64,000 nt of DNA from Sternotherus odoratus (Eukaryota > Chordata > Testudines > Kinosternidae), in NCBI GenBank assembly GCA_032164245.1, contig JAVMKO010000001.1, positions 20,497,603-20,561,602 of the forward strand. The letters are read 5' to 3'. The notes beneath the pieces are model-generated. The model worked only from the letters and a program-made list of their open reading frames with translations. It ran no database searches and was not told the DNA's origin. Below are positions 37,152 through 42,457 of this stretch, piece by piece; position 1 is the first letter of the stretch, and each line of letters starts with the position of its first letter. The position numbers and the translations under genes are program-made.

Positions 37152-37544
37152 TGTGGTAAACCCAGGGCAGGCGAGGGCCAGAGAAGGTTGTGGTGAGAGG
37201 GATAACTGCAGTTTAATTGGATCCAGCTGAACAAGGCTGCCAGAAGCAGGGCCAGCTGAGGCCAGTTAAGGAGGCTGGCAGAGCCCTTTAAAAAGACTCC
37301 TCCCCAGAGAAGAGTGTGGGAGTTGAGGAGCGAGTTTGGAGGCAGGAGGAATCAGAAGAGTGAGGTTGGTGAAAGCAGAGAGGAGTGAAGGAGAGCGAGA
37401 GACAGAGTCAGAGAGGCTGCCAGCAGACAGGAAAGCAGGAAGGAGGGAGTTAGCCCTTCCTAGCCAGCTGGGAGCCAAACCCCAGCCAGAAGAGAACAGC
37501 TAAAGGGCCTGAGTCCGGGGAGTCTGAGGAGCCACCTTGTCACA
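37152..37544 (+). repeat. 5' LTR of the Gmr1-like element
   Basis: Begins TGTGGTAAACCCAGGG and ends CACCTTGTCACA. It reads identically to 42065-42457 over 393 bp. A TATA-like TTTAAAAAG lies at 37287-37295, a reasonable U3 promoter position. No AATAAA is visible in the LTR. Purine-rich AGAGAG/GGAGGA sequence fills the second half. Confidence 0.93.
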
Positions 37545-37546
37545 CG

Positions 37547-37564
37547 TGGTGTCAGAGGTGGGAT
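37547..37564 (+). promoter_or_regulatory. Primer-binding site, tRNA-Leu type
   Basis: TGGTGTCAGAGGTGGGAT starts two bases after the 5' LTR. It complements the 3' end of a vertebrate tRNA-Leu (TGGTGTCAGGAGTGGGAT from memory) except for an AG/GA difference. It primes minus-strand DNA synthesis. Confidence 0.7.
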
Positions 37565-41600: not shown

Positions 41601-42109
41601 CCCTCTGCACCGACCCCGTGCTAATAGCCCCGGATTGGGAAAAGGAGTTTTTTTTGCAGACTGACGCCTCTGAGGTGGGGCTAGGAGCGGTGCTCTCCCA
41701 GATGGTGGATGGAGAAGACCACCCAGTCCTCTTCCTCAGTCGGAAGCTACTGCCCAGGGAACGGAAATATGCCGTAGTAGAGAAGGAGTGCCTGGCGGTA
41801 AAGTGGGCCGTAGAAAGCCTCCGCTACTATCTGCTCGGGAGACGGTTTACCCTGGTCACTGACCATGCCCCGCTGAAGTGGATGCAGCAAAACAAGGACA
41901 AAAATGCAAGAGTCACCAGATGGTTCCTCTCGCTGCAACCCTTTCATTTCCGTGTGCAACATAGGTCCGGCCGCCTGCACGGAAATGCGGATGGCCTGTC
42001 GAGGGTCCACTGTTCAGCGACCCAAGTAGCCCAACCCCATGGTGTTGAGCAGGGGGGGGGGATGTGTGGTAAACCCAGGGCAGGCGAGGGCCAGAGAAGG
42101 TTGTGGTGA
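38585..42109 (+). CDS. Pol: protease, integrase, reverse transcriptase, RNase H
   Basis: The frame is open from 38585 to a stop at 42107-42109, inside the 3' LTR. Numbered from 38621: protease D41 in TALVDSGSA; integrase HHCC zinc region about 306-345; integrase triad D375 (AMDLVGP), D434 (LTDQGTPF) and E470 (VERFNRT), with exactly 35 residues between the last two; a GPY-like tail (WQGPYEVIEAV and HVNLLKPW) near 605-650; reverse transcriptase with LPFGLHGAPATFQ and YLDD (D866, D867); RNase H D1015 (LQTDASEVGLGAVLS) and TDHAPLKW. Every catalytic residue I checked is present. There is no in-frame ATG at the 5' end, and pol is offset +1 (equivalently -2) from gag, so expression needs frameshifting or another mechanism. 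The overlap with gag contains a run of nine G. Confidence 0.93.
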   Translation: MPSAQTRWNLCNVTGGGIESPCDLINQVGVAMAPHRYTRPVKMNGISTTALVDSGSAVTLVSGKLVGRDQLARAKRSGVSCVHGDVNYYPTIPVSIDILGNPTKVMVGVVPKLPYPVLIGRDFPGFDSLLPGREAEGVSAEIQEIAPRDRGPPAFREFDPELFSMPGGPKKSRRERRAAKELGTKILTQYRRVVLVGEQVSPRGTRARRALGEPDAGPSAPQTAPEEEPGVDSLELGPIGPSMENFGQDQANDPAYHNIRKEVVEVNGVPVEGKVKGRGPYYVIKGDLLYRVDQRPDQAVEQLLVPQKHQRGVMDLAHSHLFGGHLGVDKTLDRILKRFFWPGVYAAVRRYCASCPDCQLHAPRPHLRAPLVPLPIIEVPFERIAMDLVGPLEKSARGHQHILVVLDYATRYPEAVPLRNTMSKTIARELVQIFSRVGIPKEILTDQGTPFVSKLMKDLCDLLQVRALRTSVYHPQTDGLVERFNRTLKSMIRKVVSRDGKDWDTLLPYLLFAVREVPQASTGFSPFELLYGRHPRGLLDIAKEGWEEQPNPGRNVIDHVLRMRERIAQVTPIVREHMQKAQEAQRRYYDRQALSQKFQVGDRVMVLVPTAESKLLAQWQGPYEVIEAVGDVDYKVRQPGRRKPEQIYHVNLLKPWQDREAQVVALGATPREGNQPSQIGISPELTPNQREEVISMIRRHPDVFSEAPGRTREVHHHIHTEPGVKVHVKPYRIPEARREVIGVEVRKMLKLGVIEESHSQWSSPVVLVPKPDGSVRFCNDFRRLNDVSQFDAYPLPRIDELIDRLGTARFLSTLDLTKGYWQIPLAPADKEKTAFATPEGLFQYTVLPFGLHGAPATFQRLMDKLLRPHRKYAAAYLDDVIIHSPDWETHLGKVEAVLDTLRKAGLTANPAKCSIGLAEAKYLGYIVGRGLVKPQLNKLEAIQKWPRPVRKKQVRAFLGLVGYYRRFIPHFAARACPLTDLTRARGPDIVKWSTPAEEAFRDLRTALCTDPVLIAPDWEKEFFLQTDASEVGLGAVLSQMVDGEDHPVLFLSRKLLPRERKYAVVEKECLAVKWAVESLRYYLLGRRFTLVTDHAPLKWMQQNKDKNARVTRWFLSLQPFHFRVQHRSGRLHGNADGLSRVHCSATQVAQPHGVEQGGGMCGKPRAGEGQRRLW
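38627..38635 (+). promoter_or_regulatory. G9 run in the gag-pol overlap
   Basis: Nine consecutive G lie 15 bases before the gag stop and within the gag-pol overlap. It is a plausible ribosomal slippage site, though the required shift (+1 or -2) is not the common -1. A one-base length difference here would change the frame relation, so sequencing or assembly error is a live alternative. Confidence 0.45.
42050..42064 (+). promoter_or_regulatory. Polypurine tract
   Basis: CAGGGGGGGGGGATG directly abuts the 3' LTR. Purine tracts here prime plus-strand synthesis. The G10 run is at 42052-42061. Confidence 0.8.
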
Positions 42110-42457
42110 GAGGGATAACTGCAGTTTAATTGGATCCAGCTGAACAAGGCTGCCAGAAGCAGGGCCAGCTGAGGCCAGTTAAGGAGGCTGGCAGAGCCCT
42201 TTAAAAAGACTCCTCCCCAGAGAAGAGTGTGGGAGTTGAGGAGCGAGTTTGGAGGCAGGAGGAATCAGAAGAGTGAGGTTGGTGAAAGCAGAGAGGAGTG
42301 AAGGAGAGCGAGAGACAGAGTCAGAGAGGCTGCCAGCAGACAGGAAAGCAGGAAGGAGGGAGTTAGCCCTTCCTAGCCAGCTGGGAGCCAAACCCCAGCC
42401 AGAAGAGAACAGCTAAAGGGCCTGAGTCCGGGGAGTCTGAGGAGCCACCTTGTCACA
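42065..42457 (+). repeat. 3' LTR of the Gmr1-like element
   Basis: A copy of 37152-37544 with no difference that I can see. The final pol codons and stop lie in its first 45 bases. It is followed by the CTCT target duplication and then AGTAAGTGAAAC intron sequence. Confidence 0.93.

What the first reader, a model, noticed from the sequence alone, without database searches (positions are those of the whole stretch)
37152..42457. Apparently intact, very young Gmr1-like retrotransposon
Seen: the 393-bp LTRs show no difference by eye, the flanks are a CTCT duplication, neither ORF has an internal stop, and every catalytic residue I checked is present. Integrase lies before reverse transcriptase, the Gmr1 arrangement. 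Most other mobile elements here are decayed. Inference: a recent, perhaps still active lineage in this reptile.
Basis: partly seen in the sequence, partly recalled or inferred. Interest (0 to 1): 0.9.

Follow-up and report, generated by a model that had tools for sequence, protein, structure and literature searches.

The report
Young turtle retrotransposon with slipped frame
A recently copied jumping gene of a known kind (Gmr1-like, with a SCAN-type capsid) sits in a mud/musk-turtle genome, but this copy, which looked intact, carries one extra G that splits its normally single gene in two.

Summary
The two 393-bp LTRs are identical, CTCT flanks both ends, both frames are open, and integrase precedes reverse transcriptase. 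It is a Gmr1-like Ty3/gypsy element whose Gag carries a SCAN-type capsid domain. The host is a kinosternid turtle by its mitochondrial ND5. The family multiplied recently: 40 of 40 scored copies (596 candidates) are 99-100% identical over a 456-base stretch of pol. Of 36 of these with both LTRs scored, 29 show no substitution between them.

'Intact' does not hold in the family's own terms. In 34 of 40 copies a run of eight G joins gag and pol into one frame, as in at least 80 of 120 listed relatives and in all Gmr elements of a fish survey (PMC11117352, passages). The window copy has nine G, so Gag ends at 333 residues and pol lies in the +1 frame. Four other copies have nine G and one has ten, on at least four sequence backgrounds: a recurrent slippage spot. 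The copy is young but probably cannot make Gag-Pol in the usual way. Present activity was not shown.

The parts
37148..37151 (.). target-site duplication CTCT, left copy
37152..37544 (+). 5' LTR, 393 bp, TGTG...CACA
37547..37564 (+). putative primer-binding site, 2 nt after the LTR; complementary to the 3' end of a tRNA-Leu (identity recalled, not tested)
   Evidence: same 18 letters in 64 of 152 fetched loci, one in each; many loci are pieces that do not reach this site
37617..37635 (+). poly-A run in the leader, length variable among copies
37651..38652 (+). gag frame, 333 aa, ended by the ninth G of the run below
38080..38331 (+). SCAN-type capsid domain (PF02023)
   Evidence: E 4e-18; fold
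38551..38601 (+). CCHC zinc knuckle (PF00098)
38627..38635 (+). run of nine G at the gag/pol junction; eight in 34 of 40 copies
38621..42109 (+). pol frame, in +1 relative to gag in this copy; its end lies inside the 3' LTR
38705..38953 (+). aspartic protease region
39497..40549 (+). integrase: H2C2, catalytic core, C-terminal domain
40886..41365 (+). reverse transcriptase (RVT_1)
41633..41944 (+). RNase H
42052..42061 (+). G10 run just before the 3' LTR, probable polypurine tract; 10, 11 or 13 G among 33 scored copies
42065..42457 (+). 3' LTR, identical to the 5' LTR
42458..42461 (.). target-site duplication CTCT, right copy

Best explanation
A recent insertion of a Gmr1-like Ty3/gypsy retrotransposon in a kinosternid turtle. 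The family normally makes one Gag-Pol protein from a single frame (SCAN-type capsid, zinc knuckle, protease, integrase, reverse transcriptase, RNase H). It is primed by a host tRNA just inside the 5' LTR and inserts with a 4-bp duplication. It has multiplied recently from several source lineages. The window copy is a slipped copy: one extra G in a G8 run, gained in transcription, reverse transcription or later replication, ends Gag at 333 residues and leaves pol in the +1 frame. This copy was most likely either made from an already slipped RNA with the help of sister copies, or slipped after it landed. Shown: structure, young age, many near-identical copies, the frame difference and its recurrence. 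Inferred: the cycle, when the slip happened, the tRNA, and that the copy lacks Gag-Pol.
For: LTR identity and TSD. Domain order; integrase before reverse transcriptase in 118 of 120 listed relatives and gag+IN+RT in one frame in 80 of 120 (the list is the best 120 of 7045). G-run 8 in 34, 9 in 5 and 10 in 1 of the 40 copies, found with a query that leaves the run out. At the junction 34 of 34 G8 copies read on into pol and 6 of 6 longer-run copies stop. The six lie on at least four SNP backgrounds. Control runs, changed lengths among those scored: T8 0 of 14, C6 0 of 30, 0 of 28 and 0 of 16, T7 1 of 29, G6 1 of 38. LTR pairs: 29 of 36 with 0 substitutions, 6 with 1, 1 with 2. Nine copies whose 5' LTR differs from the window's by 1-3 bases still have LTR pairs without a difference, so more than one source lineage moved. 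Fused gag-pol is stated for all Gmr elements of a fish survey (PMC11117352, passages seen). Only 2 of 51 animal elements of a survey had pol in +1 (PMC5009743, passages seen).
Against: The G-run length could be an assembly error; no raw reads were available. A 9G copy might still make Pol by ribosomal or transcriptional slippage back to eight G, or by restarting at the ATG at 38678, 25 nt after the gag stop (read). The SNPs that mark the backgrounds are few, and some (38233, 38007) occur in odd combinations, so exchange between copies may blur the count of independent slips. Among the first 16 copies the three 9G copies had the three longest leaders, which suggested one origin; two later copies broke that link. 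The age sample is biased to copies most like this one: 40 of 596 first-look candidates were scored.
Confidence: 0.85

Rival explanations
1. The G8 run is a working slippage site: most RNAs give fused Gag-Pol, some gain a G and give Gag alone, supplying the Gag excess that particles need; 9G genomic copies are DNA records of such RNAs.
For: Recurrent gain at this run, 6 gains and 0 losses in 40 copies, against at most 1 change in each other coding run that could be scored in more than one copy. The 9G product is a complete Gag ending just after the zinc knuckle.
Against: None of the 22 of 105 gag relatives with a recognisable zinc knuckle shows this junction (one ends before it); the nearest, from Chelydra, has CDLGDIGGPC where this family has CDWGGIESPC. 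So the run is not conserved at the protein level. G-runs are mutable without any function: the G10 run before the LTR varies more.
Confidence: 0.1
2. The ninth G is a sequencing or assembly error and this copy is really like its sisters.
For: Long G-runs are error-prone; the assembly is the only source.
Against: Other coding runs of 6-8 bases are almost constant across the scored copies, though none of them is a G-run as long as this one. The five 9G copies and one 10G copy lie in different places.
Confidence: 0.12
3. The 9G copies are a functional two-ORF lineage that makes Pol by +1 frameshifting or by restarting at the ATG at 38678.
For: The pol piece is open in 16 of 16 copies, including three of the five 9G copies; the pol pieces of the other two 9G copies and of the 10G copy were not fetched whole.
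Against: The six longer-run copies do not form one SNP lineage; +1 pol is rare in animals (PMC5009743).
Confidence: 0.05

Closest known systems
Gmr1-like Ty3/gypsy elements (Gadus morhua Gmr1 and Gmr families of fishes and frogs)
   Same: integrase before reverse transcriptase, fused gag-pol in the family's usual form, SCAN-type capsid; a Gadus morhua protein matches at 63% over 98% of the RT-RNase H query (P0151; that it belongs to Gmr1 itself is not shown)
   Different: shorter (5.3 kb against about 6.1-6.5 kb in the fish table of PMC11117352); the pol end runs into the 3' LTR, which that paper reports for another clade only; G8 run at the gag/pol junction
Turtle SCAN/CCHC Gag-like proteins, e.g. 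Chelydra serpentina P0001
   Same: 72% identical over 98% of Gag; gag runs into protease without a stop
   Different: a different junction, CDLGDIGGPC
SCAN domain of vertebrate zinc-finger proteins (ZNF24, PEG3, Zfp206)
   Same: same fold: the five matches below E 0.001 have target TM-score 0.81-0.83 and 29-34% identity
   Different: host genes, no polymerase; described in reviews as related to or derived from a Gmr1-like capsid (PMC3406341 and PMC4592553, passages seen)

Membership tests
LTR retrotransposon | two direct LTRs beginning TG and ending CA, with a target-site duplication | tested here: met
   a 4-bp duplication in 13 of 16 (window included; of the other three, one has 5 bp and two have one mismatch) and in 21 of 21 pairs
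Ty3/gypsy | reverse transcriptase closest to Ty3 | tested here: met
   best solved match Ty3 Gag-Pol 7q5b, E 9.6e-129 (comparison with solved structures only)
Gmr1-like clade | integrase upstream of reverse transcriptase | tested here: met
   also 118 of 120 listed relatives
Gmr1-like clade | gag and pol fused in one frame: the usual state, not the definition | tested here: not met
   not met in the window copy; met at the junction in 34 of 40 family copies
Gmr1-like clade | SCAN-type capsid (in over 50% of frog Gmr elements, PMC4131045, passages seen) | tested here: met
Gmr1-like clade | place in a reverse-transcriptase tree with outgroup clades | not tested
   no tree was built; filed on domain order and best matches
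Ongoing activity | full-length transcripts, insertion polymorphism | not testable with these tools
   no RNA or population data

The most novel reading that the evidence does not exclude
In this turtle lineage a single-frame Gmr1-like element has gained a G8 run at the gag/pol border that acts as a slippage switch, making Gag alone from slipped RNAs, with about one young genomic copy in seven (6 of 40) recording such a slip.
Probability: 0.1. Interest if true: 0.55.

Novelty: new member of a known kind. Interest (0 to 1): 0.35.

Why it matters
It documents a recent burst, in a turtle, of a SCAN-capsid Gmr1-like element, the kind held to have given rise to the SCAN domain of amniote zinc-finger genes. 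It also shows that identical LTRs and open frames do not make a copy intact: comparison with sister copies exposed a frame slip. The recurrent G-run gains let one ask whether slippage at the gag/pol border is used or merely harmful.

Tried and rejected
Rejected: 'two normal ORFs with programmed frameshift' (the sisters are fused); 'one 9G sublineage' (six longer-run copies on at least four backgrounds); 'longer-run copies are those with long poly-A' (suggested by the first 16 copies; L065 with 9G has leader 102 and L106 with 8G has leader 107). No other stretch of the window matches the element at E 1e-3. No tRNA gene was found in the window (bacterial settings). No plain TATAA or AATAAA in the LTR (a TTTAAAA is present in the printed stretch). 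Emerson & Thomas 2011, the source for SCAN from Gmr1, is not held; it is known here through passages of two reviews. Literature on turtles: Gmr1 with turtle, 13 papers, 10 listed; SCAN domain with turtle and retrotransposon, 2 papers; Kinosternon with genome assembly and transposable element, 1 paper; turtle with gypsy and LTR terms, 41 papers, 15 listed. By titles and abstract starts none of those listed describes this family. One of them (PMC11011659, passages seen) surveyed metaviral capsids in painted turtle but says that its models did not detect SCAN-domain proteins. Wanted but not obtained: older copies, total copy number, a genome-wide count of G-run classes, the tRNA identity.

Full report
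What is there. The window holds a complete LTR element at 37152-42457: two identical 393-bp LTRs, CTCT on both sides, a primer-site-like stretch 2 nt inside the 5' LTR, and a G10 run before the 3' LTR. Gag carries a SCAN domain (E 4e-18) and a zinc knuckle. Pol carries protease, integrase, reverse transcriptase and RNase H in that order. An AlphaFold2 model of Gag (mean pLDDT 78, pTM 0.46) matches solved SCAN domains best: the five matches below E 0.001 are ZNF24, Zfp206 and PEG3 chains, target TM-score 0.81-0.83.

Host. Contig C218 (17,404 bases) is mitochondrial. Its ND5 is 91% identical to a Kinosternon leucostomum cluster of three members, and the next listed matches are 72% or less. The host is therefore a kinosternid turtle, probably not that species.

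Family and relatives. The RT-RNase H part finds 7045 relatives among 7953 scored candidates, of which the best 120 were listed. By BLASTP with window pieces, all 120 match both IN and RT. In 118 the integrase comes first; two frog proteins gave the other order and were not looked into. In 80 gag, IN and RT share one frame, gag first in 80 of 80. In the other 40 no gag match was found; several are plainly partial, so this is not evidence of a split. A fish survey states that all Gmr elements have gag and pol fused in one ORF (PMC11117352, passages seen). Gag is nearest to turtle proteins, 72% to Chelydra, and that protein runs from zinc knuckle into protease without a stop.

Copies. The LTR finds 40 of 40 scored hits at 100% over 393 bases, among 2222 first-look candidates. 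These are 16 full pairs, window included, plus 8 single hits. Seven of the eight singles have a partner LTR. At the eighth (C2:159.2 Mb) the LTR is preceded by the G-run tract, but no LTR, gag or early-pol sequence was found where the 5' part was expected. None of the 24 places is a solo LTR. A stretch near the start of pol (38645-39100) finds 40 of 40 scored copies at 99-100% over 456 bases, among 596 candidates; all 16 pairs and the seven are among these 40. The pol piece 38909-42064 is open in 16 of 16 copies, and the other 15 differ from the window by 4-10 substitutions in 3.16 kb. Of 49 changes there, 31 are G>A or C>T and 20 fall in CpG. Singletons are 18 silent to 25 changing, shared variants 5 to 1, against about 16 to 33 expected in all from the same spectrum. 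This is a weak sign of selection at most.

Age. Of the 40 copies, 36 have both LTRs scored. One more (L104/L133) had a cut 3' piece, with one substitution in the part seen, and was dropped; three were not fetched at the 3' end. Twenty-nine pairs have no substitution, six have one, one has two; one of the 29 has a 1-base gap. Sixteen of the 29 had been picked because both LTRs equal the window's, but all 36 also fall in the set chosen by pol. With the mean reptile rate of 1.17e-8 per site per generation (PMC9995274, passages seen; not a rate for this turtle), 8 differences in 36 pairs give about 24,000 generations on average. For the window pair alone, zero differences bound the age only below about 330,000 generations (95%). 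The sample favours young copies. Seven substitutions are private to the window copy among the 16 in the stretches compared; one of them, at 37644, is shared by four others among the 40.

The frame. At the gag/pol border the window has nine G. Among the 40 copies, found with a query that does not include the run, 34 have eight, five have nine (window included) and one has ten; none has fewer. With eight G, gag and pol are one frame across the junction in 34 of 34; one of these has a stop later, 661 codons from the gag start. Of the longer-run copies four with nine G stop at 333 codons, one with nine G and a further insertion stops at 287, and the one with ten stops at 329. The six lie on at least four SNP backgrounds, so the gain seems to have recurred, although exchange between copies could blur this. 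Other coding runs barely vary: T8 0 of 14 scored (2 unscored), T7 1 of 29 (1 unscored), C6 0 of 30, 0 of 28 (2 unscored) and 0 of 16, G6 1 of 38 (2 unscored). One C6 run could be scored in only 1 of 40. The G10 run before the LTR does vary (25 ten, 7 eleven, 1 thirteen, 4 unscored).

Mechanism. The usual cycle is inferred from the family: LTR-driven RNA, one Gag-Pol protein cut by its protease, particle assembly by the SCAN-type capsid, tRNA-primed reverse transcription, integration with a 4-bp duplication. The 9G copy most likely came from a slip on the G-run. With pol in +1, an arrangement found in only 2 of 51 animal elements of one survey (PMC5009743, passages seen), it would need back-slippage or restart to make Pol. 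It may have moved with proteins of its sisters.

Verdict. The word 'intact' and the idea that this copy itself may be active are weakened. The kind is known and the family is a new member. The G-run behaviour is the only part that could surprise a specialist, and the plain reading, a mutable run, is the most likely.

Noticed in passing
window 6261-6379 +: A full-length 5S rRNA match (79.8 bits); could be a 5S gene copy or a 5S-derived SINE.
   Followed up: no
window 51960-53144 -: A 395-codon open stretch with a partial DDE_Tnp_4 match, perhaps a truncated DNA transposon.
   Followed up: no
G000:C2:159231163 (L025, L063): A 3' LTR identical to the window's, preceded by the G-run tract, but no LTR, gag or early-pol sequence where the 5' end is expected: a truncated or rearranged young copy.
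   Followed up: partly
flanks of 37 copies: Six of 37 target-site duplications are ATAT, and some insertions lie in AT-repeats: a possible site preference, not tested against chance.
   Followed up: no
window 42052-42109: The pol end overlaps the LTR, and copies with 11 G there (6 of 16, plus L070) end pol 12 residues earlier, so this tail may be dispensable.
   Followed up: partly
L093 8139-8878: The mitochondrial contig ends in a long stretch whose reverse-strand frames read as short tandem repeats, probably the control region.
   Followed up: no
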